From Linnemannia hyalina (Eukaryota; Mortierellomycota; Mortierellomycetes; Mortierellales; Mortierellaceae): 64,000 nucleotides of DNA. Below, piece by piece: positions 13,270 through 45,287 of this stretch; within the stretch, counting starts at the first letter, position 1, and each line of letters starts with the position of its first letter. The translations under genes and the position numbers were made by a program. The notes beneath the pieces were generated by a model that saw nothing but the letters and a program-made list of their open reading frames with translations, did no database searches and was not told the origin of the DNA. The DNA is taken from positions 1-64,000 of the forward strand of contig JAHRHY010000019.1 in the NCBI GenBank assembly GCA_019671135.1. The letters are read 5' to 3'.

Positions 13270-13720
13270 GGAGGCCATCCATGTTCGGCTCCACCAACCA
13301 TAGACTACAGTATAAAAATATCTGTCAACACCTATTAAAACAGTGTGTTCCTTGAGAGTACAACAAATCTCATCAGCTTTTTCCTTCCACCAGTCTCCAT
13401 TTTCTACATTCACCACCACTACTTTGTAACATCATCTACTTTAGCTGAGAAAGCCTTGGACATGATCATCTCATATTGGATCCTTGATATTACAGATAGT
13501 AATTTCCTTTCCAATATGAGATGATCATGTCCAAGGCTTTCTCAGCTAAAGTAGATGATGTTACAAAGTAGTGGTGGTGAATGTAGAAAATGGAGACTGG
13601 TGGAAGGAAAAAGCTGATGAGATTTGTTGTACTCTCAAGGAACACACTGTTTTAATAGGTGTTGACAGATATTTTTATACTGTAGTCTATGGTTGGTGGA
13701 GCCGAACATGGATGGCCTCC
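13270..13720. repeat. B1 left terminal palindrome with 29-nt loop
   Basis: The arms (about 211 bp each) run from GGAGGCCATCC to GGATGGCCTCC and look perfectly complementary. The loop at 13481-13509 reads TCCTTGATATTAC..., called orientation alpha. Such a palindrome could extrude or be processed as a terminal hairpin. The bases immediately inside are TAG. Confidence 0.93.
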
Positions 13721-14309
13721 TAGTAGAGCATTTGTTTTCGTGTTTATATAATTAGCGATGGTTACTAATATCTCCTTTTCATGATATATCCTATGTGTAT
13801 ATCCAATATAGCACTCGTGATACTGGTGATGATGTAGTGGTAGTTTTAAAAAAAAAGTTGGATCCCGATTTTTTTAAAAAGTAGCATAGTGGCTTTAACA
13901 AACATTGGTTGTTGGAAAGAAAGGGTAGCTGATACGTTTTTAATGGCGTTATTGCTACACTTTCTCAACAATATTCGACATTCGACATTTGACATTCGGC
14001 ATTCGATTCGACAGCTGACAAACTGTAGTTATTACCATAGTTATGATATTTGATATGAACGCATTTTGGATGACCTCGTGATTATCGTGATGTTTAATTT
14101 TAATACATTCTTGATAAACTCGTAAGTATTACAATGTTTAATGTTGACATACTTTAGGTAAGCCCACGATTTGCACGACGTTTAATATTATTACACTTTG
14201 GTTAACTTACAATTGTTATAGCATTTATTGTTATACAGATTGTAGGTAATTACGACAATGGTAAAAACAGAGATATCGCAATTAGACCATGCATTGTGGG
14301 TAGTTGTAG

Positions 14310-15240
14310 ATATAACAATTATATCGTTTAAAATAGACGTTTCTTAAAACACATCACATATTTTATAATGCAAATGGCTATTATATTACAACGTTTCTAT
14401 TGCATTTTGTGTGATAACAAGATAGAAAAAATGTATTGTTAATAGAGTAATTATGTCGTTAAAAATAGACGTTTCTTAAAACACATCACATATTTCGTGA
14501 TGCAAATGGATATAAACATCGTGGCGTTTCTATCGCATTTTGTGTGATAATAAGGTAGAGAAAATGTGTTGTTAACAGAGTAATTATGTCGTTTAAAATG
14601 GACGTTTCTTAAAACGTATCACATATTTCGTGATGCCAATGGGTATAAACATTGTGACATTTCTATCGCATTTTGTGTGATAATAAGATAGAAAAAATGT
14701 GTTGTTAACAGAGTAATTATGTCGTTTAAAATAGACGTTTCTTAAAACTTATCACATATTTCGTGATGCAAATGGGTATGAACATTGTGACATTTCTATC
14801 GCATTTTGTGTGATAATAAGGTAGAGAAAATGTGTTGTTAACAGAGTAATTATGTCGTTTAAAATGGACGTTTCTTAAAACGTATCACATATTTCGTGAT
14901 GCAAATGGGTATGAACATTGTGACATTTCTATCGCATTTTGTGTGATAACAAGACAGAAAAAAGAAGTTGTTAACAGAATAGTTATGTCGTTTAAAATAG
15001 ACGTTTCTTAAAACACATTACATATTTCGTGATGCAAATGGGTATGAACATTGTGACATTTCTATTGCATTTTGTGTGATAATAAGGTAGAGAAAATGTG
15101 TTGTTTAAAGAGCAACTATGTCTTTAAAAATAGACGTTTCTTAAAACGTACCCCATATTTCGTGATGCAAATGGGTATGAACATTGTGACATTTCTATCG
15201 CATTTTGTATGATAACAAGACAGAAAAAAGAAGTTGTATA
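14310..15240 (+). repeat. B1 left arm tandem array, about seven 133-bp repeats
   Basis: The marker TAGACGTTTCTTAAAAC (or TGGACG) recurs at 132-133-bp steps near 14336, 14468, 14601, 14734, 14867, 15000 and 15133. Each unit also holds TTTCGTGATGCAAATGGGTAT and ATTTTGTGTGATAA. The mirrored array lies at 19096-20026. Between the palindrome and this array, 13721-14309 is non-coding AT-rich DNA with a short CATTCGACATT microrepeat near 13970-14020. Repeated protein binding sites are possible. Confidence 0.88.
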
Positions 15241-15424
15241 AATAAAAGTTATGTAGACTTAGGAAATGTCTATAAAATATCGTTTGTATACTTTGGTGGT
15301 TGGGAGAAAATTGGTGGTTACAAAAAAGTTGTCGCAAAACCGCCATGATGAAATACTTTGACATCTGGTTGAGGGGCTTGTTCCCCTATCGTGTTTATCG
15401 TTAATAGTTTTAAAAAATCCAAAA

Positions 15425-15606
15425 GTGTGTTATATAAAGGAATTTTTGCTAATAGTTTACGTTTAAATTCTCTTGAAATAGATGATATATGCATTATATT
15501 TCTATCCAATCTATCATGGAATATGAGATAACTTCTTTTATAGTGCAACAAATCTAAAAGTGTATTGTAGTATAGGCATTTTTCCTAATGGTTTACTAGT
15601 TATGCA
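15425..15606 (+). promoter_or_regulatory. Duplicated promoter-like block upstream of the B1 small gene
   Basis: The block AAAAGTGTGTTATATAAAGG followed by AATTTTTGCTAATAGTTTA lies at the inner edge of the arm (15421-15459). A diverged second copy (AAAAGTGTATTGTAGTATAGG, then CATTTTTCCTAATGGTTTA) lies at 15552-15596, just before the small-gene ATG at 15607. The arm version, read on the other strand from 18877, immediately precedes the transposase ATG. The TATATAAAGG core supports a promoter. Confidence 0.55.
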
Positions 15607-15852
15607 ATGCCAACACTTAAAGAAATTAAGCAAATAATAGCCATTTATATACATGAGCATCATATGGATCCTACAATGGCAATGTACTTGAGAGCTGTTT
15701 TGTTACGTGGTAAGTCTCAGCAAGAACTAAATGGTATGTCAAAGGAAGAACTGTGGGGATTGGTAGACTTTTTTGCACCAGATTTACAAAAACATATGCA
15801 TGCAATTGGAGCATTATCATGGTCAGCACACAGAAAATTTGCTTCAGAGTAA
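15607..15852 (+). CDS. Small protein of family B (B1 copy), 81 aa
   Basis: Unrecognised family. It is predicted to be mostly helical (MPTLKEIKQIIAIYIHEHH start) and has no zinc or membrane motif. It occupies the same place relative to the Rep-like gene as the 90-aa gene of family A, ending 55 nt before its ATG. Sequence similarity to that protein is too low to claim homology by eye. GGTTTTTAAAAAG lies in the gap. Confidence 0.65.
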   Translation: MPTLKEIKQIIAIYIHEHHMDPTMAMYLRAVLLRGKSQQELNGMSKEELWGLVDFFAPDLQKHMHAIGALSWSAHRKFASE

Positions 15853-15907
15853 AGTGGTTTTTAAAAAGTTTGTAGTACATATCTCTGCAAACAGTAAGCT
15901 ATTCAAC

Positions 15908-17560
15908 ATGTCCGCTATACCTAAATCCATTAACAAGGCGCTGAACTCATATGCCCATCTTATCTCTGATGTGGGCAAAGAGATTGCATTGCCTGGCAAA
16001 CCGAAGACGGGCTGGAAAAAGTACTCAGAGATATTCTGCGATAGTTTAATACTCTGGGGATTGCACAACCGGGCTGCACTTGTTGACGAGCAGCGCAAAA
16101 ACACCACTTCCAATATTCGCGAAGCTTTTAAAGGCCTCGATGTTAGCCACTCCATGGTTAAAGTTGTTAACGAGGGTTATATCAAAGACAATAGTTTTTT
16201 TAGCTCTAAACTACTAGAAAAACATAGAAAAAAGTTTAGAAGTTCGGCCTTATACCATGCTGGTTACTTTAGCATTAAGGTAACGCTCCATGAACTAGAG
16301 GCCATATCTCTAATATCCGAGATAATACCAATACTTGATGAACTGGAGGTTGACTACGTTATCCTTCATGATATAGATATTGCTACGGATTGTAGATATG
16401 TCACAAGCCGTCCAATTCTTCAACAGTACCTTCAAGAGAGATTTGGAGAAAATTTAGATATTGCCAACGATCTCCATAAGGTTGGTAACCACTGTCTTTC
16501 TTGGTTTGGAGTCACCGAAAAAGACCAAAAGGTCCGTTGTAAGGTCTACAACAAACTTGTACAGATGTTGGAGAGTGCTGAAGTAAAAATGTCGTTGGGT
16601 TCAAGAATGGAGAATTTTGTCATGGATGTGGATAAGGACCTACATAAGAGACTTCGAAAGGCAAAGAAAACAGGTCTAACAAGACTTGAACTTACCTTTT
16701 ATGGACAGGAGATATATACATTCTCCTATTATAAAGGAGTTTTGGATGCCATAAAGGAAGAGATCCAAGAATGTCCCACCTTCTGCGTAAAGCACAAGGC
16801 ATATTGGAAGTACATAGTTGGCAATATATCATCCATGGTAGGTATTCATGTAACAATGGGTGAAAAATCGGCATTCGCATATTGCCATTGGTGGAACTCT
16901 GTTACAGGTAAGAAGTATGGTTCATATCGTAACAATGTCGAGAAAGAGGAAGCAATGACGTTGTTAGCCAACTATAGCTTCAACGATAGACCAATATACT
17001 TTTTGGAGGTTGAGATGGATGAGAATAGCATCAAGGATATTACAGTTACCAAGTACAAACGGCCTGACGAATGTACAGCAATAACACTTGTTGCAGGAGC
17101 ACATAAAGGCATGTACCCATACATTTACGATGATGATGTTTTACAATTCGAGGATATGGGTATAGTGGAGGTAGATAATGTAAAGATCCAATGGCCTGAG
17201 AGAAGAATCCGCAAAGGTGCACCACCAATTGTTGATATTCATCTAGAAAACATGAATGGTGAGAATTTTATACAAGTCCATGATAGAGCTATCCACAAAG
17301 CAACATATAAAGCTGGATATAATGTACTTGAAATAAATACCAGCTATACAGTCATAGCAATTGCAATGGATATGTATCACAACAAAGAATATATTTTTGC
17401 AACATTGTCCAATGGTATTAAAGTACGATGTGGACTTAGTTTAGAAATAAAGATCGTTGCATGGCTGGAAGAATATCCCGATGGCCAAGTTCCGTATATG
17501 AATTTCACCACATTGCAATGCAGAACTGTTCGCGGGTTCAAGGATATTTATATACGTTAA
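15908..17560 (+). CDS. Rep-like protein of family B (B1 copy), 550 aa
   Basis: This is a clear homologue of the family A Rep-like protein over its whole length. Shared blocks include CDSLILWG (44-51), HDIDIATDC (154-162), GNHCLSW (193-199), KVYNKLVQMLESAEV (212-226), TRLELTF (258-264), FAYCHWWNSVTGKKYG (323-338), ANYSFNDRPIYF and ECTAITLVAG. The frame is open upstream to 15773 through the small gene, but the ATG at 15908 (MSAIPKS) aligns with family A and is preferred. In an element with palindromic ends, a replication-initiator or nickase role is the leading hypothesis. It rests on motif resemblance to Rep_trans-type proteins and has not been tested by structure. Confidence 0.75.
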   Translation: MSAIPKSINKALNSYAHLISDVGKEIALPGKPKTGWKKYSEIFCDSLILWGLHNRAALVDEQRKNTTSNIREAFKGLDVSHSMVKVVNEGYIKDNSFFSSKLLEKHRKKFRSSALYHAGYFSIKVTLHELEAISLISEIIPILDELEVDYVILHDIDIATDCRYVTSRPILQQYLQERFGENLDIANDLHKVGNHCLSWFGVTEKDQKVRCKVYNKLVQMLESAEVKMSLGSRMENFVMDVDKDLHKRLRKAKKTGLTRLELTFYGQEIYTFSYYKGVLDAIKEEIQECPTFCVKHKAYWKYIVGNISSMVGIHVTMGEKSAFAYCHWWNSVTGKKYGSYRNNVEKEEAMTLLANYSFNDRPIYFLEVEMDENSIKDITVTKYKRPDECTAITLVAGAHKGMYPYIYDDDVLQFEDMGIVEVDNVKIQWPERRIRKGAPPIVDIHLENMNGENFIQVHDRAIHKATYKAGYNVLEINTSYTVIAIAMDMYHNKEYIFATLSNGIKVRCGLSLEIKIVAWLEEYPDGQVPYMNFTTLQCRTVRGFKDIYIR

Positions 17561-17597
17561 GAATGCTAATAGATAGTTTTTAAAAATTACAATGGGC
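17561..17597. terminator. B1 convergent gap with AGTTTTTAAAAATT
   Basis: A 37-nt gap between the Rep-like and transposase stop codons with the same palindromic T/A motif as the family A gap, although the flanking sequence is unrelated. The mirrored copy is at 40960-40996. Its conservation between families supports a function in 3' end formation. Confidence 0.45.
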
Positions 17598-18857
17598 TTA
17601 CTTTGTACGCTTATATGATGGAATCTCCACTCCTGCAAAAATTTCACGTCGCTTATTAGTCGGCTCTTCCCGTTGTTTATCCTCGACATCCATAGTAGTC
17701 ATCTCCAAGAACTGCTCTTGTAACTTTGTTATATCTCGTGCATCATGCAACATCTCATCCACTGGAATATAATCCAAGATTTGTTCCATTGCACCATTGG
17801 CATATGGAAAGTCGAAGCCATCTCTAATCCAGGCACTATGAATGGGTTCCAGATTTAACTGCAGTAGTGCCACCATCTTCTTGATGTTCATAAGTAAGAG
17901 ACACAATCGCAATTGCAAATTATATGTTTCTATCTTGGTTACCAACACTGGTTTCCTATTGTTGTGCTTCTCAAAGGTTGCTCCAAGATCTCCAAATTCG
18001 GCTTCTATCTGAGAGCGGAAACTGCCGAAAATCTTATTGTAGTTAGTTTCATCTTGTGCAAGATCTTTCCCACGGCTTTTGCGAATTGGATAACAAAAGT
18101 TTTTCTTGCTCATGCTTGTTTCTTCTACTATTTTCTTAATGTATTGTGTGTACCCTCCATCCAATGCAATACAATCTAGCTCGTGGATGTGCTTATGTAT
18201 CTTCATACCAACCAACATAGTACCATCGTTGTTATCCTTGCAAGGTAGCGATTTAGAGACTAGTATTGCCATGCCATTGCAATCGACACACACTTGCGTT
18301 CTTACACCAGATTTCTTCAGCTTGTAAGAGTACATGTCTGAGCTAGACTTTTCTTCACATGAAAGACGTGTATCATGACCATCCAAATGCAATGTTACAT
18401 GTGGGAATAGTGGTGGATTCCTGAGTTTAGCAGACATCAAGCGTATAGGAAATGTGGAGAACATATTCGCAAGTGCATGGTTAATATGCTTCGAATGCAC
18501 ATTATAGTTAGTCTTGTAGAACTCTGTATGAATGGAGTGGAAACTACTTTTTGGTATGTGGGTTGACATTCCATCCATTGCCAAGCCTGCAACTAAGTGG
18601 TACAATATCAACAATCCTTTGTCGACTTCTCTGTATGGACCTGGATACTGCTTGAGAGACCAAATAACTACAAGAAAGTAGAATACAGGAATTGCACCTA
18701 ATCTTCTTATAAGTAAGTCTTTAACAGTTTTCATATGTGCTACTAGCTTCAACGCAGTCCTATGATTATTAGATGGTTCTTGCGTAGGCCATTCTACATC
18801 CAAAAAAGTCCATTCATCCTCTAACAACCGTTGAAATAGGCGCTTTAAGTTTGCCAT
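17598..18857 (-). CDS. Family B DDE transposase (B1 copy), 419 aa
   Basis: The likely catalytic triad is D159 (HLDGHDTR), D233 (ALDGGY) and E285 in RSQIEAEFGD. The helix-turn-helix-like segment is about 87-112. It is closer to the family C transposase (shared SFHSxH, SYKLKKSGVRTQV and FGSFRSQ blocks) than to family A. The ATG at 18857 (MANLKRLF) aligns with family C. The 18 upstream codons in frame lie partly in promoter-like sequence and are excluded. Confidence 0.87.
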   Translation of the reverse strand: MANLKRLFQRLLEDEWTFLDVEWPTQEPSNNHRTALKLVAHMKTVKDLLIRRLGAIPVFYFLVVIWSLKQYPGPYREVDKGLLILYHLVAGLAMDGMSTHIPKSSFHSIHTEFYKTNYNVHSKHINHALANMFSTFPIRLMSAKLRNPPLFPHVTLHLDGHDTRLSCEEKSSSDMYSYKLKKSGVRTQVCVDCNGMAILVSKSLPCKDNNDGTMLVGMKIHKHIHELDCIALDGGYTQYIKKIVEETSMSKKNFCYPIRKSRGKDLAQDETNYNKIFGSFRSQIEAEFGDLGATFEKHNNRKPVLVTKIETYNLQLRLCLLLMNIKKMVALLQLNLEPIHSAWIRDGFDFPYANGAMEQILDYIPVDEMLHDARDITKLQEQFLEMTTMDVEDKQREEPTNKRREIFAGVEIPSYKRTK

Positions 18858-18876
18858 GACTGTAATTACAACCTGG

Positions 18877-18921
18877 TAAACTATTAGCAAAAATTCCTTT
18901 ATATAACACACTTTTGGATTT
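18877..18921 (-). promoter_or_regulatory. TATA-like promoter of the B1 transposase
   Basis: Read on the minus strand: AAAAGTGTGTTATATAAAGG, then AATTTTTGCTAATAGTTTA. The TATA-like core is about 40 nt upstream of the ATG at 18857, which implies a very short leader. It belongs to the inverted arm, so the same sequence also faces the small/Rep-like side. Confidence 0.5.
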
Positions 18922-19095
18922 TTTAAAACTATTAACGATAAACACGATAGGGGAACAAGCCCCTCAACCAGATGTCAAAGTATTTCATCATGGCGGTTTT
19001 GCGACAACTTTTTTGTAACCACCAATTTTCTCCCAACCACCAAAGTATACAAACGATATTTTATAGACATTTCCTAAGTCTACATAACTTTTATT

Positions 19096-20026
19096 TATAC
19101 AACTTCTTTTTTCTGTCTTGTTATCATACAAAATGCGATAGAAATGTCACAATGTTCATACCCATTTGCATCACGAAATATGGGGTACGTTTTAAGAAAC
19201 GTCTATTTTTAAAGACATAGTTGCTCTTTAAACAACACATTTTCTCTACCTTATTATCACACAAAATGCAATAGAAATGTCACAATGTTCATACCCATTT
19301 GCATCACGAAATATGTAATGTGTTTTAAGAAACGTCTATTTTAAACGACATAACTATTCTGTTAACAACTTCTTTTTTCTGTCTTGTTATCACACAAAAT
19401 GCGATAGAAATGTCACAATGTTCATACCCATTTGCATCACGAAATATGTGATACGTTTTAAGAAACGTCCATTTTAAACGACATAATTACTCTGTTAACA
19501 ACACATTTTCTCTACCTTATTATCACACAAAATGCGATAGAAATGTCACAATGTTCATACCCATTTGCATCACGAAATATGTGATAAGTTTTAAGAAACG
19601 TCTATTTTAAACGACATAATTACTCTGTTAACAACACATTTTTTCTATCTTATTATCACACAAAATGCGATAGAAATGTCACAATGTTTATACCCATTGG
19701 CATCACGAAATATGTGATACGTTTTAAGAAACGTCCATTTTAAACGACATAATTACTCTGTTAACAACACATTTTCTCTACCTTATTATCACACAAAATG
19801 CGATAGAAACGCCACGATGTTTATATCCATTTGCATCACGAAATATGTGATGTGTTTTAAGAAACGTCTATTTTTAACGACATAATTACTCTATTAACAA
19901 TACATTTTTTCTATCTTGTTATCACACAAAATGCAATAGAAACGTTGTAATATAATAGCCATTTGCATTATAAAATATGTGATGTGTTTTAAGAAACGTC
20001 TATTTTAAACGATATAATTGTTATAT
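19096..20026 (-). repeat. B1 right arm tandem array, 133-bp repeats
   Basis: Exact mirror of 14310-15240 as far as can be read. An 82-codon ORF at 18972-19220 lies in the arm and recurs only because the arms are identical. Confidence 0.88.
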
Positions 20027-20615
20027 CTACAACTACCCACAATGCATGGTCTAATTGCGATATCTCTGTTTTTACCATTGTCGTAATTACCTACAATCTG
20101 TATAACAATAAATGCTATAACAATTGTAAGTTAACCAAAGTGTAATAATATTAAACGTCGTGCAAATCGTGGGCTTACCTAAAGTATGTCAACATTAAAC
20201 ATTGTAATACTTACGAGTTTATCAAGAATGTATTAAAATTAAACATCACGATAATCACGAGGTCATCCAAAATGCGTTCATATCAAATATCATAACTATG
20301 GTAATAACTACAGTTTGTCAGCTGTCGAATCGAATGCCGAATGTCAAATGTCGAATGTCGAATATTGTTGAGAAAGTGTAGCAATAACGCCATTAAAAAC
20401 GTATCAGCTACCCTTTCTTTCCAACAACCAATGTTTGTTAAAGCCACTATGCTACTTTTTAAAAAAATCGGGATCCAACTTTTTTTTTAAAACTACCACT
20501 ACATCATCACCAGTATCACGAGTGCTATATTGGATATACACATAGGATATATCATGAAAAGGAGATATTAGTAACCATCGCTAATTATATAAACACGAAA
20601 ACAAATGCTCTACTA

Positions 20616-21066
20616 GGAGGCCATCCATGTTCGGCTCCACCAACCATAGACTACAGTATAAAAATATCTGTCAACACCTATTAAAACAGTGTGTTCCTTG
20701 AGAGTACAACAAATCTCATCAGCTTTTTCCTTCCACCAGTCTCCATTTTCTACATTCACCACCACTACTTTGTAACATCATCTACTTTAGCTGAGAAAGC
20801 CTTGGACATGATCATCTCATATTGGAAAGGAAATTACTATCTGTAATATCAAGGATCCAATATGAGATGATCATGTCCAAGGCTTTCTCAGCTAAAGTAG
20901 ATGATGTTACAAAGTAGTGGTGGTGAATGTAGAAAATGGAGACTGGTGGAAGGAAAAAGCTGATGAGATTTGTTGTACTCTCAAGGAACACACTGTTTTA
21001 ATAGGTGTTGACAGATATTTTTATACTGTAGTCTATGGTTGGTGGAGCCGAACATGGATGGCCTCC
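20616..21066. repeat. B1 right terminal palindrome
   Basis: Arms as at the left end. The loop at 20827-20855 reads AAGGAAATTACTATC..., the reverse complement of the left loop. Read inward from each end, both loops of B1 therefore have the same orientation. Preceded by CTA, followed by the TCA duplication. Confidence 0.93.
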
Positions 21067-21069
21067 TCA

Positions 21070-21335
21070 AGTGCGTTATATGGACCAGGGAAATAGTGTT
21101 TACTCCAGATGGTAGATAGAAAGAAAAACACTGGTATGGCTCCAAGTCTCTTCATCAACACCTTTTTCATATCCTGTATTCTTGCAATTGGTTTCAACTC
21201 TGAACGATGAAATGTCTTGACCTTTGGGCACATTGGCCACGGTTCATCAAGAAATCCCCATTCGTTCTCCAACAGATTATCAAGCAGCCGTGCAAGTTTC
21301 TTTGGCGTAGGGTTTACGATGGTATCAGTCTCCAT
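21070..21335 (-). pseudogene. A2 transposase, 5' part, interrupted by B1
   Basis: Codons 1-88, starting METDTIVNPT (V7I against the other copies). It joins 12247-13261 once B1 and one TCA are removed. Upstream, 21336-21460 is the usual non-coding subterminal segment. Confidence 0.9.
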
Positions 21336-21460
21336 AATGTCGTTTTCTGCAAAAATAGGGATTATACACACGTAATTATGTCAATTATTCCCTAGAATTC
21401 CCCAGATATGTCATATTAAGACATGGTGGGCATAGCTTAACAAAAGACGAGAAAACAGGT

Positions 21461-22152
21461 GTACTCCCTCGCCCAAAAAAAAGCGCTCCAACCTTTTTGT
21501 CCTGCCCGATTACCGATATGTAAAATATGTTTATGTTGATACTCTCTCCTTACGTTTTGCTCTTGTAATACTGCTAGATAACTATGTCCATTTGGATTCT
21601 TTTGCTTTTGTATATGTACTCTTTATAGATGTATTTGTTATCTTTTTAAAAACTCCTTCCATAATTGTCTGTACAAATTCTTGCAACCTCCATTGGTATT
21701 CCATAACATATTCATCTATTTCGACCCAAGACGATTCCCATTTAGATGTGTATTTTGTTTTACAGATTGGCTTTGATATCCGCGACAAATATATTCCCCA
21801 CGTTGACCTATTATGTATCTCTTATTTTATAATCTACTCTTGATCTACTTTAATATTCCAATGCGTGGGTTGGGTACTCCCTCGCCCAAAAAAAAGCGCT
21901 CCAACCTTTTTGTCCTGCCCGATTACCGATATGTAAAATATGTTTATGTTGATACTCTCTCCTTACGTTTTGCTCTTGTAATACTGCTAGATAACTATGT
22001 CCATTTGGATTCTTTTGCTTTTGTATATGTACTCTTTATAGATGTATTTGTTATCTTTTTAAAAACTCCTTCCATAATTGTCTGTACAAATTCTTGCAAC
22101 CTCCATTGGTATTCCATAACATATTCATCTATTTCGACCCAAGACGATTCCC
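21461..22152 (-). repeat. A2 right end: two inverted terminal units
   Basis: Units 21461-21739 and 21874-22152 with one 134-bp spacer, against one unit at the left end of the same element. Confidence 0.9.
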
Positions 22153-22155
22153 ATT

Positions 22156-22290
22156 GTGGAAAAAGAAAAGTTGGACGAGCGTAACTTCTGTTTTCCCATT
22201 CGTAAGAAACGACTACAGCAACTCCACGAAGAGGAATCCAACTTTAATGCTATGTTTGGTGGATTTCGATCTACGTCAGAGGCTGTCTTT
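22156..22290 (+). pseudogene. A0 transposase, third fragment
   Basis: Corresponds to codons 254-298 and ends in GTCTTT, directly before the FGD of the catalytic glutamate block. The next base begins the terminal unit of A3. The remaining 387 nt of this gene are missing. Confidence 0.9.
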
Positions 22291-22785
22291 GGGAAATGTC
22301 TTGGGTCGAAATAGTTAAATATGTTATGGAATACCAATGGAAGTTGCAAGAATTTGTACAGACGATTATGGAAGGAGTTTTTAAAAAGACAACAGATATA
22401 TCTATAAAGAATACATATACAAAAGCAAAAGAATCCAAATGGACATAGTTATCTAGCAGTATTACAAGAGCAAAACGTAAGGAAAGAGTATCAACATAAA
22501 CATATTTTACATATCGGTAATCGAGGAATAGAATTGGGGGAGTGCGCTTTTTTTTGGGCGAGGGAGTACACCTGTTTTCTCGTCTTTTGTTAAGCTATGC
22601 CCACCATTTTAAATCACCTACGTTCATATAACATATATAGCATTTATACATGTGTCAACGGTGAATCTCATGCATATACATCATGATGATAATGGTACCA
22701 GCTTGGTTGACAGTACATGAATTCCCTGGGAATAATTCCCATAATACTACTTATGGAAGGTATATATATTGCACATTTTAAAAGA

Positions 22786-23178: not shown

Positions 23179-23374
23179 ATTAGGCGGAATGGTGATCTCT
23201 TGATAGTTGATATACCACGTTTTTTCCCGGGAATATTTCTCTCAATGTTTGTGTTTGAGGGCATACACAACAATATCTAATATAGATGTCAAGTTGTATC
23301 TATTCAAGGGAGTAATTGACAAATAGGTATATAGGGGGATGAGCATTTAGACGTCTTATCGCCGCAAATATATT

Positions 23375-23647: not shown

Positions 23648-23692
23648 CGACCTAAATTATAGACTTTTTAAAACCTAAGTATACCTTTTATT

Positions 23693-25396: not shown

Positions 25397-25431
25397 GAGG
25401 TTTTTAAAAACTTTGGAAAGACTGTTGTTAA

Positions 25432-27634: not shown

Positions 27635-27679
27635 CGACCTAAATTATAGACTTTTTAAAACCTAAGTATACCTTTTATT

Positions 27680-29383: not shown

Positions 29384-29418
29384 GAGGTTTTTAAAAACTT
29401 TGGAAAGACTTTTGTTAA

Positions 29419-36400: not shown

Positions 36401-37490
36401 CTTGTAAACATGCACAAGGTGGAATATGCCACTTGCGCCAAACAAATCCAATCTTACCTCGGAACGTGTAATTTTTTCCGTGAATATGTTCCAAACTTCA
36501 GTACGGTCGCAGCACCTCTGGATGCACTTCGCAGTCGAACCGACTCTTTCGTAATGAATGATGAGCAGAAGCGCGCCTTTGATGCACTACGAAATATCTT
36601 GCTCATAGCCCCTGTCTTGTCCTTCCCAGACTTCAGTCAACCTTTCTATGTAGCCACCGATGCTTCTAACGTCGGGATTGGCGCTGTACTCTATCAACTT
36701 CCAAAGGGTCCAAAGTACCCAGACACTATCAACTATATATCATTCATGTCGCGATCTTTGCAAGATCGTGAACGCAGATATTCAGCAACGCATAGAGAAT
36801 TGTTAGCGATTGTCTTTGCACTCAATCGTTTTCACTACTACCTCTGGGGAAGACACTTTGACTTATATACCGATCATCGTTCACTTGTATACATCCATAC
36901 TCAACCTGAGCTCAACTCAATGCTCACCAACTGGCAAGAAACAATCTTAAACTATACTTTCACGGTGCACTATCGCCCAGGCATTCTTAACGTATTACCC
37001 GATGCCCTATCACGCCTATATCCAATTGAAATCACAAATAAAAATACAACTAAAGCTGATCAAAAGAAAATTATTTCCTACATGCATCTAATCCAAGATA
37101 AAGAAACTGAACGCAAAGAAGTAGATCCAGTTAAAAGAAACAATATATTGTTTACAACCCATGCAATGGGACATATTGGAGCAAACGCAATGGTCAATTC
37201 TATTCATGAACAAGGACTTACTTGGCCTCATCTGTCACAAGAATGTGTCGATTTTATCAAACGATGCCGAGAATGTCAACGATTCAATATTGCACGAAAA
37301 GGATACCATCCTATGAAAGCCATCAATGCTCAACTTCCAGGAGAACACATAGCCATTGATCTGGCAGGTCCGCTTCCGTTGACAAAGAACAAAAACGTCC
37401 GACTACTTGTAGTTGTTGATGTTTGTACGCGATTTGTTTTCTTGCGCGCCTTGCCAAACAAAAAAGGTCTAACTGTAGCCACTGCGCTAT
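33491..37490 (+). pseudogene. Gypsy-2 Gag-Pol, segment 1 (gag to integrase core), interrupted by B2
   Basis: One fused frame, 1671 codons in total with the second segment. Gag is followed by two zinc knuckles at about 260-295 (CQGCSWNNSHETKDC-type and CTFCSNRGHTYADC). Protease D-T-G-A is near 587 (LVDTGATDS). RT active site FIDD is near 906, RNase H ATDAS near 1055 and TDHRS near 1128. The integrase HHCC finger is at 1222-1262 and the first integrase aspartate (AIDLAGP) near 1287. The start is MPRFSLNP at 33491. The frame is broken at codon 1334 by B2. No other lesion is visible. Confidence 0.9.
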
Positions 37491-37941
37491 GGAGGCCATC
37501 CATGTTCGGCTCCACCAACCATAGACTACAGTATAAAAATATCTGTCAACACCTATTAAAACAGTGTGTTCCTTGAGAGTACAACAAATCTCATCAGCTT
37601 TTTCCTTCCACCAGTCTCCATTTTCTACATTCACCACCACTACTTTGTAACATCATCTACTTTAGCTGAGAAAGCCTTGGACATGATCATCTCATATTGG
37701 AAAGGAAATTACTATCTGTAATATCAAGGATCCAATATGAGATGATCATGTCCAAGGCTTTCTCAGCTAAAGTAGATGATGTTACAAAGTAGTGGTGGTG
37801 AATGTAGAAAATGGAGACTGGTGGAAGGAAAAAGCTGATGAGATTTGTTGTACTCTCAAGGAACACACTGTTTTAATAGGTGTTGACAGATATTTTTATA
37901 CTGTAGTCTATGGTTGGTGGAGCCGAACATGGATGGCCTCC
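37491..37941. repeat. B2 left terminal palindrome, flipped loop
   Basis: The arms match those of B1. The loop at 37702-37730 reads AAGGAAATTACTATC..., the reverse complement of the loop at the left end of B1. Confidence 0.93.
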
Positions 37942-38530
37942 TAGTAGAGCATTTGTTTTCGTGTTTATATAATTAGCGATGGTTACTAATATCTCCTTTT
38001 CATGATATATCCTATGTGTATATCCAATATAGCACTCGTGATACTGGTGATGATGTAGTGGTAGTTTTAAAAAAAAAGTTGGATCCCGATTTTTTTAAAA
38101 AGTAGCATAGTGGCTTTAACAAACATTGGTTGTTGGAAAGAAAGGGTAGCTGATACGTTTTTAATGGCGTTATTGCTACACTTTCTCAACAATATTCGAC
38201 ATTCGACATTTGACATTCGGCATTCGATTCGACAGCTGACAAACTGTAGTTATTACCATAGTTATGATATTTGATATGAACGCATTTTGGATGACCTCGT
38301 GATTATCGTGATGTTTAATTTTAATACATTCTTGATAAACTCGTAAGTATTACAATGTTTAATGTTGACATACTTTAGGTAAGCCCACGATTTGCACGAC
38401 GTTTAATATTATTACACTTTGGTTAACTTACAATTGTTATAGCATTTATTGTTATACAGATTGTAGGTAATTACGACAATGGTAAAAACAGAGATATCGC
38501 AATTAGACCATGCATTGTGGGTAGTTGTAG

Positions 38531-39461
38531 ATATAACAATTATATCGTTTAAAATAGACGTTTCTTAAAACACATCACATATTTTATAATGCAAATGGCT
38601 ATTATATTACAACGTTTCTATTGCATTTTGTGTGATAACAAGATAGAAAAAATGTATTGTTAATAGAGTAATTATGTCGTTAAAAATAGACGTTTCTTAA
38701 AACACATCACATATTTCGTGATGCAAATGGATATAAACATCGTGGCGTTTCTATCGCATTTTGTGTGATAATAAGGTAGAGAAAATGTGTTGTTAACAGA
38801 GTAATTATGTCGTTTAAAATGGACGTTTCTTAAAACGTATCACATATTTCGTGATGCCAATGGGTATAAACATTGTGACATTTCTATCGCATTTTGTGTG
38901 ATAATAAGATAGAAAAAATGTGTTGTTAACAGAGTAATTATGTCGTTTAAAATAGACGTTTCTTAAAACTTATCACATATTTCGTGATGCAAATGGGTAT
39001 GAACATTGTGACATTTCTATCGCATTTTGTGTGATAATAAGGTAGAGAAAATGTGTTGTTAACAGAGTAATTATGTCGTTTAAAATGGACGTTTCTTAAA
39101 ACGTATCACATATTTCGTGATGCAAATGGGTATGAACATTGTGACATTTCTATCGCATTTTGTGTGATAACAAGACAGAAAAAAGAAGTTGTTAACAGAA
39201 TAGTTATGTCGTTTAAAATAGACGTTTCTTAAAACACATTACATATTTCGTGATGCAAATGGGTATGAACATTGTGACATTTCTATTGCATTTTGTGTGA
39301 TAATAAGGTAGAGAAAATGTGTTGTTTAAAGAGCAACTATGTCTTTAAAAATAGACGTTTCTTAAAACGTACCCCATATTTCGTGATGCAAATGGGTATG
39401 AACATTGTGACATTTCTATCGCATTTTGTATGATAACAAGACAGAAAAAAGAAGTTGTATA
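38531..39461 (+). repeat. B2 left arm 133-bp repeats
   Basis: Matches 14310-15240 of B1, about seven units. 37942-38530 is non-coding. Confidence 0.88.
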
Positions 39462-39699
39462 AATAAAAGTTATGTAGACTTAGGAAATGTCTATAAAATA
39501 TCGTTTGTATACTTTGGTGGTTGGGAGAAAATTGGTGGTTACAAAAAAGTTGTCGCAAAACCGCCATGATGAAATACTTTGACATCTGGTTGAGGGGCTT
39601 GTTCCCCTATCGTGTTTATCGTTAATAGTTTTAAAAAATCCAAAAGTGTGTTATATAAAGGAATTTTTGCTAATAGTTTACCAGGTTGTAATTACAGTC

Positions 39700-40959
39700 A
39701 TGGCAAACTTAAAGCGCCTATTTCAACGGTTGTTAGAGGATGAATGGACTTTTTTGGATGTAGAATGGCCTACGCAAGAACCATCTAATAATCATAGGAC
39801 TGCGTTGAAGCTAGTAGCACATATGAAAACTGTTAAAGACTTACTTATAAGAAGATTAGGTGCAATTCCTGTATTCTACTTTCTTGTAGTTATTTGGTCT
39901 CTCAAGCAGTATCCAGGTCCATACAGAGAAGTCGACAAAGGATTGTTGATATTGTACCACTTAGTTGCAGGCTTGGCAATGGATGGAATGTCAACCCACA
40001 TACCAAAAAGTAGTTTCCACTCCATTCATACAGAGTTCTACAAGACTAACTATAATGTGCATTCGAAGCATATTAACCATGCACTTGCGAATATGTTCTC
40101 CACATTTCCTATACGCTTGATGTCTGCTAAACTCAGGAATCCACCACTATTCCCACATGTAACATTGCATTTGGATGGTCATGATACACGTCTTTCATGT
40201 GAAGAAAAGTCTAGCTCAGACATGTACTCTTACAAGCTGAAGAAATCTGGTGTAAGAACGCAAGTGTGTGTCGATTGCAATGGCATGGCAATACTAGTCT
40301 CTAAATCGCTACCTTGCAAGGATAACAACGATGGTACTATGTTGGTTGGTATGAAGATACATAAGCACATCCACGAGCTAGATTGTATTGCATTGGATGG
40401 AGGGTACACACAATACATTAAGAAAATAGTAGAAGAAACAAGCATGAGCAAGAAAAACTTTTGTTATCCAATTCGCAAAAGCCGTGGGAAAGATCTTGCA
40501 CAAGATGAAACTAACTACAATAAGATTTTCGGCAGTTTCCGCTCTCAGATAGAAGCCGAATTTGGAGATCTTGGAGCAACCTTTGAGAAGCACAACAATA
40601 GGAAACCAGTGTTGGTAACCAAGATAGAAACATATAATTTGCAATTGCGATTGTGTCTCTTACTTATGAACATCAAGAAGATGGTGGCACTACTGCAGTT
40701 AAATCTGGAACCCATTCATAGTGCCTGGATTAGAGATGGCTTCGACTTTCCATATGCCAATGGTGCAATGGAACAAATCTTGGATTATATTCCAGTGGAT
40801 GAGATGTTGCATGATGCACGAGATATAACAAAGTTACAAGAGCAGTTCTTGGAGATGACTACTATGGATGTCGAGGATAAACAACGGGAAGAGCCGACTA
40901 ATAAGCGACGTGAAATTTTTGCAGGAGTGGAGATTCCATCATATAAGCGTACAAAGTAA
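39700..40959 (+). CDS. Family B DDE transposase (B2 copy), 419 aa
   Basis: Protein sequence identical to the B1 copy, with the triad D159, D233, E285. The TATATAAAGG promoter block is at about 39650-39660, 40 nt before the ATG. Confidence 0.87.
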   Translation: MANLKRLFQRLLEDEWTFLDVEWPTQEPSNNHRTALKLVAHMKTVKDLLIRRLGAIPVFYFLVVIWSLKQYPGPYREVDKGLLILYHLVAGLAMDGMSTHIPKSSFHSIHTEFYKTNYNVHSKHINHALANMFSTFPIRLMSAKLRNPPLFPHVTLHLDGHDTRLSCEEKSSSDMYSYKLKKSGVRTQVCVDCNGMAILVSKSLPCKDNNDGTMLVGMKIHKHIHELDCIALDGGYTQYIKKIVEETSMSKKNFCYPIRKSRGKDLAQDETNYNKIFGSFRSQIEAEFGDLGATFEKHNNRKPVLVTKIETYNLQLRLCLLLMNIKKMVALLQLNLEPIHSAWIRDGFDFPYANGAMEQILDYIPVDEMLHDARDITKLQEQFLEMTTMDVEDKQREEPTNKRREIFAGVEIPSYKRTK

Positions 40960-40996
40960 GCCCATTGTAATTTTTAAAAACTATCTATTAGCATTC

Positions 40997-42649
40997 TTAA
41001 CGTATATAAATATCCTTGAACCCGCGAACAGTTCTGCATTGCAATGTGGTGAAATTCATATACGGAACTTGGCCATCGGGATATTCTTCCAGCCATGCAA
41101 CGATCTTTATTTCTAAACTAAGTCCACATCGTACTTTAATACCATTGGACAATGTTGCAAAAATATATTCTTTGTTGTGATACATATCCATTGCAATTGC
41201 TATGACTGTATAGCTGGTATTTATTTCAAGTACATTATATCCAGCTTTATATGTTGCTTTGTGGATAGCTCTATCATGGACTTGTATAAAATTCTCACCA
41301 TTCATGTTTTCTAGATGAATATCAACAATTGGTGGTGCACCTTTGCGGATTCTTCTCTCAGGCCATTGGATCTTTACATTATCTACCTCCACTATACCCA
41401 TATCCTCGAATTGTAAAACATCATCATCGTAAATGTATGGGTACATGCCTTTATGTGCTCCTGCAACAAGTGTTATTGCTGTACATTCGTCAGGCCGTTT
41501 GTACTTGGTAACTGTAATATCCTTGATGCTATTCTCATCCATCTCAACCTCCAAAAAGTATATTGGTCTATCGTTGAAGCTATAGTTGGCTAACAACGTC
41601 ATTGCTTCCTCTTTCTCGACATTGTTACGATATGAACCATACTTCTTACCTGTAACAGAGTTCCACCAATGGCAATATGCGAATGCCGATTTTTCACCCA
41701 TTGTTACATGAATACCTACCATGGATGATATATTGCCAACTATGTACTTCCAATATGCCTTGTGCTTTACGCAGAAGGTGGGACATTCTTGGATCTCTTC
41801 CTTTATGGCATCCAAAACTCCTTTATAATAGGAGAATGTATATATCTCCTGTCCATAAAAGGTAAGTTCAAGTCTTGTTAGACCTGTTTTCTTTGCCTTT
41901 CGAAGTCTCTTATGTAGGTCCTTATCCACATCCATGACAAAATTCTCCATTCTTGAACCCAACGACATTTTTACTTCAGCACTCTCCAACATCTGTACAA
42001 GTTTGTTGTAGACCTTACAACGGACCTTTTGGTCTTTTTCGGTGACTCCAAACCAAGAAAGACAGTGGTTACCAACCTTATGGAGATCGTTGGCAATATC
42101 TAAATTTTCTCCAAATCTCTCTTGAAGGTACTGTTGAAGAATTGGACGGCTTGTGACATATCTACAATCCGTAGCAATATCTATATCATGAAGGATAACG
42201 TAGTCAACCTCCAGTTCATCAAGTATTGGTATTATCTCGGATATTAGAGATATGGCCTCTAGTTCATGGAGCGTTACCTTAATGCTAAAGTAACCAGCAT
42301 GGTATAAGGCCGAACTTCTAAACTTTTTTCTATGTTTTTCTAGTAGTTTAGAGCTAAAAAAACTATTGTCTTTGATATAACCCTCGTTAACAACTTTAAC
42401 CATGGAGTGGCTAACATCGAGGCCTTTAAAAGCTTCGCGAATATTGGAAGTGGTGTTTTTGCGCTGCTCGTCAACAAGTGCAGCCCGGTTGTGCAATCCC
42501 CAGAGTATTAAACTATCGCAGAATATCTCTGAGTACTTTTTCCAGCCCGTCTTCGGTTTGCCAGGCAATGCAATCTCTTTGCCCACATCAGAGATAAGAT
42601 GGGCATATGAGTTCAGCGCCTTGTTAATGGATTTAGGTATAGCGGACAT
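40997..42649 (-). CDS. Rep-like protein of family B (B2 copy), 550 aa
   Basis: Identical to the B1 protein. Start MSAIPKS at 42649. Converges on the transposase gene with a 37-nt gap carrying the TTTTTAAAAA motif. Confidence 0.75.
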   Translation of the reverse strand: MSAIPKSINKALNSYAHLISDVGKEIALPGKPKTGWKKYSEIFCDSLILWGLHNRAALVDEQRKNTTSNIREAFKGLDVSHSMVKVVNEGYIKDNSFFSSKLLEKHRKKFRSSALYHAGYFSIKVTLHELEAISLISEIIPILDELEVDYVILHDIDIATDCRYVTSRPILQQYLQERFGENLDIANDLHKVGNHCLSWFGVTEKDQKVRCKVYNKLVQMLESAEVKMSLGSRMENFVMDVDKDLHKRLRKAKKTGLTRLELTFYGQEIYTFSYYKGVLDAIKEEIQECPTFCVKHKAYWKYIVGNISSMVGIHVTMGEKSAFAYCHWWNSVTGKKYGSYRNNVEKEEAMTLLANYSFNDRPIYFLEVEMDENSIKDITVTKYKRPDECTAITLVAGAHKGMYPYIYDDDVLQFEDMGIVEVDNVKIQWPERRIRKGAPPIVDIHLENMNGENFIQVHDRAIHKATYKAGYNVLEINTSYTVIAIAMDMYHNKEYIFATLSNGIKVRCGLSLEIKIVAWLEEYPDGQVPYMNFTTLQCRTVRGFKDIYIR

Positions 42650-42704
42650 GTTGAATAGCTTACTGTTTGCAGAGATATGTACTACAAACTTTTTAAAAAC
42701 CACT

Positions 42705-42950
42705 TTACTCTGAAGCAAATTTTCTGTGTGCTGACCATGATAATGCTCCAATTGCATGCATATGTTTTTGTAAATCTGGTGCAAAAAAGTCTACCAATCC
42801 CCACAGTTCTTCCTTTGACATACCATTTAGTTCTTGCTGAGACTTACCACGTAACAAAACAGCTCTCAAGTACATTGCCATTGTAGGATCCATATGATGC
42901 TCATGTATATAAATGGCTATTATTTGCTTAATTTCTTTAAGTGTTGGCAT
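42705..42950 (-). CDS. Small protein of family B (B2 copy), 81 aa
   Basis: Identical to the B1 copy. The diverged promoter-like block lies just upstream (42960-43010 on this strand). Confidence 0.65.
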   Translation of the reverse strand: MPTLKEIKQIIAIYIHEHHMDPTMAMYLRAVLLRGKSQQELNGMSKEELWGLVDFFAPDLQKHMHAIGALSWSAHRKFASE

Positions 42951-43316
42951 TGCATAACTAGTAAACCATTAGGAAAAATGCCTATACTACAATACACTTT
43001 TAGATTTGTTGCACTATAAAAGAAGTTATCTCATATTCCATGATAGATTGGATAGAAATATAATGCATATATCATCTATTTCAAGAGAATTTAAACGTAA
43101 ACTATTAGCAAAAATTCCTTTATATAACACACTTTTGGATTTTTTAAAACTATTAACGATAAACACGATAGGGGAACAAGCCCCTCAACCAGATGTCAAA
43201 GTATTTCATCATGGCGGTTTTGCGACAACTTTTTTGTAACCACCGATTTTCTCCCAACCACCAAAGTATACAAACGATATTTTATAGACATTTCCTAAGT
43301 CTACATAACTTTTATT

Positions 43317-44247
43317 TATACAACTTCTTTTTTCTGTCTTGTTATCATACAAAATGCGATAGAAATGTCACAATGTTCATACCCATTTGCATCACGAAAT
43401 ATGGGGTACGTTTTAAGAAACGTCTATTTTTAAAGACATAGTTGCTCTTTAAACAACACATTTTCTCTACCTTATTATCACACAAAATGCAATAGAAATG
43501 TCACAATGTTCATACCCATTTGCATCACGAAATATGTAATGTGTTTTAAGAAACGTCTATTTTAAACGACATAACTATTCTGTTAACAACTTCTTTTTTC
43601 TGTCTTGTTATCACACAAAATGCGATAGAAATGTCACAATGTTCATACCCATTTGCATCACGAAATATGTGATACGTTTTAAGAAACGTCCATTTTAAAC
43701 GACATAATTACTCTGTTAACAACACATTTTCTCTACCTTATTATCACACAAAATGCGATAGAAATGTCACAATGTTCATACCCATTTGCATCACGAAATA
43801 TGTGATAAGTTTTAAGAAACGTCTATTTTAAACGACATAATTACTCTGTTAACAACACATTTTTTCTATCTTATTATCACACAAAATGCGATAGAAATGT
43901 CACAATGTTTATACCCATTGGCATCACGAAATATGTGATACGTTTTAAGAAACGTCCATTTTAAACGACATAATTACTCTGTTAACAACACATTTTCTCT
44001 ACCTTATTATCACACAAAATGCGATAGAAACGCCACGATGTTTATATCCATTTGCATCACGAAATATGTGATGTGTTTTAAGAAACGTCTATTTTTAACG
44101 ACATAATTACTCTATTAACAATACATTTTTTCTATCTTGTTATCACACAAAATGCAATAGAAACGTTGTAATATAATAGCCATTTGCATTATAAAATATG
44201 TGATGTGTTTTAAGAAACGTCTATTTTAAACGATATAATTGTTATAT
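43317..44247 (-). repeat. B2 right arm 133-bp repeats
   Basis: Inverted copy of 38531-39461. The full inverted arms of B2 are 37491-39680 and 43098-45287, 2,190 bp each. 44248-44836 is non-coding. Confidence 0.88.
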
Positions 44248-44836
44248 CTACAACTACCCACAATGCATGGTCTAATTGCGATATCTCTGTTTTTACCATT
44301 GTCGTAATTACCTACAATCTGTATAACAATAAATGCTATAACAATTGTAAGTTAACCAAAGTGTAATAATATTAAACGTCGTGCAAATCGTGGGCTTACC
44401 TAAAGTATGTCAACATTAAACATTGTAATACTTACGAGTTTATCAAGAATGTATTAAAATTAAACATCACGATAATCACGAGGTCATCCAAAATGCGTTC
44501 ATATCAAATATCATAACTATGGTAATAACTACAGTTTGTCAGCTGTCGAATCGAATGCCGAATGTCAAATGTCGAATGTCGAATATTGTTGAGAAAGTGT
44601 AGCAATAACGCCATTAAAAACGTATCAGCTACCCTTTCTTTCCAACAACCAATGTTTGTTAAAGCCACTATGCTACTTTTTAAAAAAATCGGGATCCAAC
44701 TTTTTTTTTAAAACTACCACTACATCATCACCAGTATCACGAGTGCTATATTGGATATACACATAGGATATATCATGAAAAGGAGATATTAGTAACCATC
44801 GCTAATTATATAAACACGAAAACAAATGCTCTACTA

Positions 44837-45287
44837 GGAGGCCATCCATGTTCGGCTCCACCAACCATAGACTACAGTATAAAAATATCTGTCAACACCT
44901 ATTAAAACAGTGTGTTCCTTGAGAGTACAACAAATCTCATCAGCTTTTTCCTTCCACCAGTCTCCATTTTCTACATTCACCACCACTACTTTGTAACATC
45001 ATCTACTTTAGCTGAGAAAGCCTTGGACATGATCATCTCATATTGGATCCTTGATATTACAGATAGTAATTTCCTTTCCAATATGAGATGATCATGTCCA
45101 AGGCTTTCTCAGCTAAAGTAGATGATGTTACAAAGTAGTGGTGGTGAATGTAGAAAATGGAGACTGGTGGAAGGAAAAAGCTGATGAGATTTGTTGTACT
45201 CTCAAGGAACACACTGTTTTAATAGGTGTTGACAGATATTTTTATACTGTAGTCTATGGTTGGTGGAGCCGAACATGGATGGCCTCC
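44837..45287. repeat. B2 right terminal palindrome, flipped loop
   Basis: The loop at 45048-45076 reads TCCTTGATATTAC..., opposite to the loop at the right end of B1. Confidence 0.93.

What the first reader, a model, noticed from the sequence alone, without database searches (positions are those of the whole stretch)
13270..45287. Flip/flop of terminal hairpin loops between two copies of a DDE transposon
B1 and B2 look essentially identical over 7,797 bp, yet the 29-nt loops at the centres of their 451-bp terminal palindromes (13481-13509, 20827-20855; 37702-37730, 45048-45076) lie in opposite orientations. Read inward, both ends of B1 are one form and both ends of B2 the other. Inverting a whole element cannot cause this, because the loop pair is symmetric under inversion. 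Such inversion is the hallmark of hairpin-end replication (parvovirus- or poxvirus-like ends) or of hairpin opening and re-ligation. I know of no cut-and-paste DDE transposon with this behaviour.
Basis: partly seen in the sequence, partly recalled or inferred. Interest (0 to 1): 0.93.

Follow-up and report, generated by a model that had tools for sequence, protein, structure and literature searches.

The report
Jumping gene with flip-flopping hairpin ends
A fungal jumping gene carries a 451-base hairpin-forming sequence at each end whose 29-base tip points either way at random and independently from copy to copy, and it also carries a second gene that resembles bacterial enzymes which nick hairpin DNA, so its movement may include a hairpin step not known for this class of transposon.

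Summary
B1 and B2 differ by one substitution outside the loops, and both loops are flipped. Genome-wide, 100 of 101 counted loops were listed. For the 60 that are element ends, the loop read inward is one form 32 times and the other 28. The two ends vary independently: 19 pairs are TT 6, AA 5, TA 5, AT 3. Six of 15 elements with intact target-site duplications have unlike ends. Loop alleles match between the two ends in 17 of 19. In the three clean groups where one insertion was copied with its surroundings, orientation is kept. Flipping therefore looks tied to transposition rather than to time in place, on few cases. Substitutions mirrored in both arms show arm-to-arm copying.

The partner gene is not the usual Myb/SANT protein. 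Its invariant residues, and more weakly its predicted fold, resemble Rep_trans rolling-circle nickases, but sequence profiles do not recognise it.

Best reading: a PHIS-like DDE transposon whose terminal hairpins are opened or recopied during transposition. Who does it (host repair or the Rep-like protein) is open. Parvovirus-like replication is possible but not shown. Raw reads were not available.

The parts
13270..21066 (+). Element B1 (7,797 bp), loops T (left) and T (right) read inward
37491..45287 (-). Element B2 (7,797 bp), inverted relative to B1, loops A and A read inward; TSD TAT/TAT
13270..13720 (.). B1 left terminal palindrome (211 + 29 + 211)
20616..21066 (.). B1 right terminal palindrome
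37491..37941 (.). B2 left terminal palindrome
44837..45287 (.). B2 right terminal palindrome
13481..13509 (+). Loop, T form on + strand
20827..20855 (-). Loop, T form on - strand
37702..37730 (-). Loop, T form on - strand
45048..45076 (+). Loop, T form on + strand
13270..15460 (+). B1 left long terminal inverted repeat (begins with the palindrome, holds the 133-bp array 14317-15229)
18876..21066 (-). B1 right long terminal inverted repeat (133-bp array 19117-20019)
37491..39681 (+). B2 long terminal inverted repeat
43097..45287 (-). B2 long terminal inverted repeat
15773..17560 (+). B1 ORF1, 595 aa, Rep_trans-like protein (residues 82-337 TBP/Rep_trans-type fold; D90, D202, D206, Y259, K261, R304, E306)
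17598..18911 (-). B1 ORF2, 437 aa, DDE_Tnp_4 transposase
40997..42784 (-). B2 copy of ORF1
39646..40959 (+). B2 copy of the transposase
13262..13269 (.). 8 extra bases GGAGGCTA between the B1 TSD (TCA, 13259-13261) and its left tip; the right TSD TCA is at 21067-21069
   Evidence: comparison with uninterrupted family-A sequence at 3285-3320

Best explanation
B is a two-gene, PHIS-like DDE transposon whose ends are 451-bp foldback palindromes. Each palindrome can fold into a hairpin or cruciform. In the course of transposition (excision, re-insertion or repair of the donor gap) each terminal hairpin is opened or recopied at random with respect to strand. The 29-nt tip is thus inverted with probability near one half, separately at each end, and arm sequences are copied onto each other. 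Afterwards the orientation is inherited stably. Shown: random and independent orientation, arm-to-arm copying, and stability in the few clean duplicates. Inferred: the coupling to transposition and the hairpin intermediate. Undecided: whether host repair or replication enzymes do it, or the element's own Rep_trans-like protein. Nicking hairpin DNA is the known job of the enzymes it resembles.
For: (1) 60 element ends: 32 T, 28 A, p = 0.70; 19 pairs TT 6, TA 5, AT 3, AA 5, Fisher p = 0.65. (2) 6 of the 15 pairs with exact 3-bp TSDs have unlike ends, so crossing-over between different elements is not the cause in these; four of the six (C1, C13, C29, C33) also have the same allele at both ends, while C5 and C16 do not. 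(3) Ends share the loop allele in 17 of 19 pairs against 41% expected, p = 1.7e-5, so most flips did not import foreign loops. (4) B1/B2: one substitution, two flips. Element C13:770770 (A,T) is identical to B1 over the 2,760 bp compared. So three near-identical transposed copies show three states. (5) Clean duplicates of one insertion keep orientation: C5/C6/C19/C23 at both ends (left flank of C5 and C6 99.9% over 871 bp, elements with 48 mismatches in an 8,104-bp BLAST alignment), C29/C37 at the one end read, and the solo trio C16/C44/C29. That is 0 flips in 5 comparisons counted conservatively, 9 if every copy counts. (6) Two of 42 palindromes read in full carry the same substitution in both arms, against one with a change in one arm only. 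(7) In 29 ends the arms have pi 0.0003-0.0007, the next 500 bp 0.0057. (8) 71 of 71 interior ends found are joined to a palindrome. (9) Rep_trans-like ORF1.
Against: The stability argument rests on few independent duplications. The shared flank of C5/C6/C19/C23 is a family-C sequence with 70 copies, so 'one insertion' rests on the same site, the same interior strand and the unusual A/G allele pair; three of the four copies may be recent near-identical ones, and C5/C6 differences cluster in the tandem arrays. The trio lies in a family-A repeat. For C29/C37 one flank was compared. Other groups that share a 30-bp flank do differ in loop orientation: C12/C29 (different private SNPs, so separate insertions), C9/C13/C16 (C13 and C16 have the same interior orientation, and differ by loop and by a 9-bp insertion, so an in-place flip is possible there), and C11:1253887/C21:2017 (one truncated). 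Family A, which has a homologous Rep-like protein, has no palindromic ends in this window. No reads, no intermediates, no biochemistry.
Confidence: 0.5

Rival explanations
1. Ordinary homologous recombination without any hairpin. A palindrome has the same sequence in both directions, so gene conversion between the two ends of an element, between sister chromatids or between copies can use either register. Each conversion inverts the loop half of the time, at any time, independent of transposition.
For: Explains 50:50, independence, shared alleles (conversion within the element), mirrored arm changes, near-identical long terminal repeats within most elements (0-2 differences outside loop-edge alignment slips in 6 of 7, 25 in C3) and low arm diversity. 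Recombination between palindromes is seen: C8:23774 and C8:27885 carry exchanged flanks (ttt/ata and aaa/tat) that fit an inversion between them. Loops imported from other copies exist (C5 A/G, C16 G/A, C13 T-G-T). C13/C16 may be an in-place flip. Hairpin-loop inversions are known in chloroplast DNA (PMC12928735, passages).
Against: Clean duplicates of one insertion show no flips while near-identical transposed copies show two; a constant-rate process in place does not fit both easily. Frequent conversion from other copies would break allele matching.
Confidence: 0.3
2. Dedicated rolling-hairpin amplification: the Rep-like protein nicks at the palindrome border or tip, the 3' end copies the hairpin as in parvovirus terminal resolution, and the DDE transposase only integrates the product.
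For: Flip/flop independent at both ends is what this predicts; a parvovirus replication model predicts flip/flop at both termini (PMC1185569, passages). ORF1 resembles nickases that act on a stem-loop with the nick site at its tip (PMC4797284, passages). The centre folds into an asymmetric bulged mini-hairpin. Palindromes with interior on both sides exist (2 of 100 listed).
Against: Parvovirus concatemers are described as head-to-head or tail-to-tail (PMC3087758, abstract start, which also reports a bocavirus exception), but the one B dimer whose strands are known, C13:780385-795523, is head-to-tail. Family A has the Rep-like protein but no palindromes. Elements keep exact 3-bp TSDs as in cut-and-paste. 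ORF1 activity is untested and profile searches do not find Rep_trans.
Confidence: 0.13
3. Assembly artefact: loops placed arbitrarily by the assembler or polisher.
For: Reads not available. Four contig ends (C4 start; C6, C19, C23 ends) fall inside a palindrome, so palindromes trouble the assembly.
Against: Duplicated insertions on four contigs agree at both ends, including the unusual A/G allele pair; the Gx trio and the C29/C37 pair agree too. TSDs are intact in 15 of 19 pairs. A 451-bp palindrome is short for long reads (general knowledge; the read type is unknown).
Confidence: 0.05

Closest known systems
PHIS superfamily DDE transposons (PIF/Harbinger, ISL2EU, Pangu, Nuwa)
   Same: DDE_Tnp_4 transposase; two genes; 3-bp target-site duplications
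   Different: No TWA-type target rule (ATG, CAT, TAG, AAA, TTT, TAA and others seen); second gene is not recognisably Myb/SANT or YqaJ but Rep_trans-like; ends are long palindromes
Rep_trans rolling-circle replication initiators (pT181 RepD/RepSTK1, inovirus RstA type)
   Same: Ordered residues D...DxAxD...YxK..Q...RxE...YG and, at a modest score, the TBP-like fold region
   Different: Not recognised by the Pfam model or by profile-profile comparison; longer protein; encoded by a eukaryotic DDE transposon
Parvovirus terminal hairpins (AAV, LuIII)
   Same: Imperfect terminal palindromes, tip in both orientations, both ends independent
   Different: Chromosomal element with TSDs; no HUH or helicase domain found; no known extrachromosomal form; the one dimer with known strands is head-to-tail
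Foldback-like transposons such as Galileo
   Same: Very long terminal inverted repeats containing tandem arrays; recombination between copies
   Different: Other transposase family; the one Galileo paper searched has no hit for palindrom, hairpin or gene conversion (PMC3573991, term search only)
Small hairpin-loop inversions of chloroplast DNA
   Same: Short spacer between inverted repeats found in both orientations (5-50 bp inversions, cited in PMC12928735, passages)
   Different: Those are sites in an organelle genome with 11-24 bp repeats; here 211-bp arms, about 100 dispersed copies, and an apparent link with transposition

Membership tests
PHIS superfamily | DDE_Tnp_4-type transposase | tested here: met
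   PF13359 E 2.4e-7, 31 bits against a cut-off of 24.8; most listed relatives carry PF13359
PHIS superfamily | Short TSD, typically 3 bp | tested here: met
   15 of 19 pairs; 21 of 36 solo palindromes with both flanks read, four of the 36 being nested pairs on C33 and C47
PIF/Harbinger group | TWA target (recalled) and a second ORF with Myb/SANT domain (PMC4482050, passages) | tested here: not met
   TSDs include ATG, CAT, TAG, AAA, TTT; no Myb/SANT among the families listed for ORF1 or for its 60-member alignment (25 of 36 families listed)
Rep_trans (PF02486) | Match to the family profile | tested here: not met
   No PF02486 row among the 25 of 36 families listed for 60 members; no match in the own genome at E 10, control rings in B. 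subtilis; hhalign against 40 RstA-type proteins probability 0.3%, controls with the transposase profile 0.1%. One distant homologue, 1 of 60, matches phrog_702 'replication protein' at 1.6e-6
Rep_trans (PF02486) | Active-site residues D, DxAxD, Y, RxE in order | tested here: met
   D90, D206, K257, Y259, K261, R304, E306 in 60 of 60, D202 in 59, A204 in 43. Full pattern found in the RstA-type consensus at a 60% but not a 70% threshold, not in the transposase; in 0 of 200,000 column shuffles of ORF1. Positions of RepDE from PMC4797284 (passages). The arginine of RxDxAxD is D200 here, and the literature motif YxxK is met only as YxK
Rep_trans (PF02486) | TBP-like crescent fold | tested here: inconclusive
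Rep_trans (PF02486) | Hairpin nicking activity | not testable with these tools
   -
Parvovirus-like rolling-hairpin element | Terminal hairpins in flip and flop at both ends | tested here: met
Parvovirus-like rolling-hairpin element | HUH-type Rep/NS1 with helicase | tested here: not met
   no such domain listed for either ORF by Pfam
Parvovirus-like rolling-hairpin element | Head-to-head or tail-to-tail dimers | tested here: inconclusive
   one dimer with known strands, head-to-tail; C27:64640 and C9:2132 not resolved
Parvovirus-like rolling-hairpin element | Hairpin-ended extrachromosomal DNA | not testable with these tools
   -
Foldback/Galileo-like | P-superfamily transposase | tested here: not met
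   transposase is DDE_Tnp_4

The most novel reading that the evidence does not exclude
A eukaryotic transposon that combines a DDE transposase with a Rep_trans-like hairpin nickase and moves through a hairpin-ended intermediate. At each move the Rep-like protein opens the terminal palindromes and they are recopied, so the tips flip and flop as in parvoviruses, while the DDE enzyme makes the 3-bp insertion.
Probability: 0.22. Interest if true: 0.95.

Novelty: new variant of a known kind. Interest (0 to 1): 0.8.

Why it matters
If flipping is tied to transposition, a DDE cut-and-paste transposon has a hairpin-processing step at its ends that simple cut-and-paste does not have, and loop orientation becomes a free natural record of transposition events. 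If ORF1 is a Rep_trans nickase, a fold family described as restricted to bacterial mobile elements until its recent recognition in archaea (PMC13107129, passages) sits in fungal transposons beside a DDE transposase. Both points are directly testable.

Tried and rejected
Whole-element inversion: cannot change the inward loop state (checked on the sequences). Crossing-over between different elements as the general cause: rejected for the 15 pairs with intact TSDs. Palindromes popping out of element ends as independent units: no naked interior end among 71. Solo palindromes (38 of 100 listed, including truncated, nested and contig-end cases) may be mobile miniature elements or deletion products of full elements; both would leave a TSD and I could not separate them. 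C12/C29 as an in-place flip: rejected, C12 has three private SNPs at both ends that C29 lacks. C9/C13/C16: not resolved. A second palindrome at 61477-61759 is two family-A ends facing each other, not a B-type end. A first diversity contrast (pi 0.0108, 62 segregating sites in the next 600 bp) was inflated by one truncated end; one search gives 0.0057 and 14 sites in 500 bp, with or without that end. Rep_trans by profile: negative. tblastn of a distant ORF1 homologue found nothing in phages and two weak hits (E 3 and 6) in plasmids. PDB sequence search of the transposase and of the ORF1 profile: nothing. The open frame in the palindrome arm (51 aa) has no Pfam match. Absence from print: the searches listed, by title and start of abstract, no DDE transposon with flip/flop palindromic ends and none with a Rep_trans-type partner; subscription papers are not held and listings were capped at 10-20 rows. 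Of the papers used I saw passages only (PMC12928735, PMC4482050, PMC1185569, PMC4797284, PMC13107129), a term search without hits (PMC3573991), or the start of the abstract in a listing (PMC3087758).
Full report
WHAT IS THERE. The window is the start of contig C11 of a 51.5-Mb, 50-contig assembly. It opens with a telomere-like array of AACCCTAAAA, 1-590. The named sources among the nearest proteins are mostly Mortierella-type fungi; the organism itself is not named. B1 (13270-21066) and B2 (37491-45287) are 7,797-bp elements with 2.2-kb terminal inverted repeats that begin with a 451-bp palindrome (211-bp perfect arms, 29-nt centre). B2 sits in the integrase region of a chromodomain Gypsy-type retroelement. 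B1 sits in an element of another family; it has TSD TCA plus 8 extra bases at the left tip. The two genes are a DDE_Tnp_4 transposase and ORF1 (595 aa).

CENSUS. A pattern search with up to 3 mismatches counts 101 loops and lists 100. Another finds 72 interior-to-palindrome junctions; 71 are exact and the 72nd, with 3 mismatches at C5:1727941, was dropped before counting. Of the 100 listed palindromes 60 have interior on one side, 38 on neither (including truncated, nested and contig-end cases), 2 on both. Seven of the 71 junctions have no listed loop: three run into contig ends, two flank a palindrome that lost its centre (C9:2132-2489), two on C33 are unexplained. Independently, 71 interior ends are found by their own sequence, and they are the same 71 places.

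ORIENTATION. Read from outside inward, the 60 loops are T 32, A 28 (binomial p 0.70). Nineteen pairs of facing ends give TT 6, TA 5, AT 3, AA 5 (Fisher p 0.65). Two further pairs that involve a palindrome with interior on both sides were left out. Pairs were made by adjacency; five exceed 10 kb, presumably through nested insertions, and their interiors were not read. Fifteen of 19 have an exact 3-bp TSD; among these the states are TT 5, AA 4, TA 4, AT 2. Among the seven copies of exactly 7,797 bp they are TA, AA, AA, TT, TT, AA, AT. So all four states occur in intact single insertions. Loop position 5 has three common alleles (G, A, T; 33, 17, 10 of 60); both ends agree in 17 of 19 pairs (expected 41%, p 1.7e-5). 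The exceptions are C5 (A/G) and C16 (G/A); in addition the C13 dimer reads T-G-T.

WHEN DOES IT FLIP. B1 and B2 differ by one substitution and two flips. C13:770770 matches B1 at 1,260 of 1,260 and 1,500 of 1,500 sites compared and has a third state. On the other hand, insertions copied with their surroundings keep orientation. C5, C6, C19 and C23 share the left flank, the interior strand, loop A(+) on the left and G(+) on the right; the right loops of C6, C19 and C23 are read for 21 of 29 nt because the contigs end there. That flank is a family-C sequence with 70 copies in the genome, so their identity as one insertion rests on site, strand and the unusual allele pair together. C5 and C6 flanks are 99.9% alike over 871 bp; the elements show 48 mismatches in an 8,104-bp BLAST alignment (68 in the MAFFT alignment), many in the tandem arrays; the interiors of C19 and C23 were not read. 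C29:19966 and C37:25141 agree at the one end compared, with 266 of 266 inner bases alike. The solo palindromes C16:806122, C44:11306 and C29:8795 agree with both flanks and a rare loop allele. Other shared sites are not clean: C12/C29 differ in private SNPs; C9, C13 and C16 share a flank, C13 and C16 also the interior orientation, and C13 differs by loop and by a 9-bp insertion; C11:1253887/C21:2017 involves a truncated copy. In each of these groups at least one orientation differs, so an occasional flip in place is not excluded. Under free flipping in place, the chance that the clean comparisons all agree is 1/32 counting conservatively and 1/512 counting all nine; the independence of the nine is doubtful.

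LOCAL COPYING. Of 42 palindromes read in full, 38 have both arms equal to the reference. Two carry one substitution mirrored in both arms (C8:1168929 position 156, C11:1252503 position 78), one has a change in one arm only (C3:1977491), and one is truncated. In 29 element ends the outer and inner arms have 2 and 1 segregating sites in 211 bp (pi 0.0007 and 0.0003), the next 500 bp have 14 (pi 0.0057). The centre is not simply unpaired: both orientations fold into a bulged mini-hairpin.

MECHANISM. Strand transfer by a DDE enzyme keeps the link between interior and palindrome, so an inverted tip needs either a cut at the inner palindrome border with rejoining, or recopying of the folded arm (inference). 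Both can happen if the hairpin is opened during transposition, by the Rep-like protein or by host repair of the donor gap. Register-free homologous recombination in place is the main rival; recombination between palindromes does seem to happen in this genome (the flank exchange at C8:23774/27885), but alone it fits the stability of duplicated insertions less well. Rolling-hairpin replication is allowed, not shown.

KNOWN OR NEW. Second genes of PHIS elements are Myb/SANT or YqaJ proteins (PMC4482050, passages). My literature searches list nothing with flip/flop ends in a DDE transposon or a Rep_trans-type partner (titles and abstract starts). I rate it a new variant of a known kind, with a minority case for something categorically new.

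Noticed in passing
1-590: Telomere-like array AACCCTAAAA, so the region is subtelomeric
   Followed up: no
13262-13269: Eight extra bases GGAGGCTA between the B1 target duplication and its left tip; they begin like the element tip itself
   Followed up: partly
about 1802-8694 and other copies: Family A: DDE_Tnp_4 transposase plus a homologue of ORF1, 413-bp tandem repeats in the terminal repeats, no terminal palindromes seen in the window
   Followed up: partly
47216-52680, 55193-60656: Family C: DDE_Tnp_4 transposase, unrelated 748/736-aa partner, one tip ending GGCCTCC like B and apparent 3-bp TSDs (TTA, ATA), no palindromes
   Followed up: partly
G000:C8:23774-28335: Two solo palindromes with exchanged 3-bp flanks, fitting an inversion of the DNA between them
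   Followed up: yes
G000:C13:780385-795523: Head-to-tail dimer of B sharing one palindrome; loops T-G-T
   Followed up: partly
L049 (G000:C9:2132-2489): Palindrome with interior on both sides that lost 93 bp at its centre
   Followed up: partly
G000:C4 start; ends of C6, C19, C23: Four contig ends lie inside a B palindrome, three at the same loop base
   Followed up: partly
13481-13496 and the 100 listed loops: The half TCCTNGATATTACAGA of the loop stays constant while the other half varies in a few; it resembles, from memory, the TAATATTAC nick-site motif of small circular DNA viruses
   Followed up: no
13510-13720: Palindrome arm contains an open frame of about 50 codons with protein-like composition, perhaps a captured gene piece; no Pfam match
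   Followed up: partly
G000:C44:2818445-2851884: A family-C motif recurs every ~8.35 kb five times, suggesting a tandem array
   Followed up: no
61477-61759: 283-bp palindrome made of two family-A ends facing each other across 27 bp
   Followed up: yes
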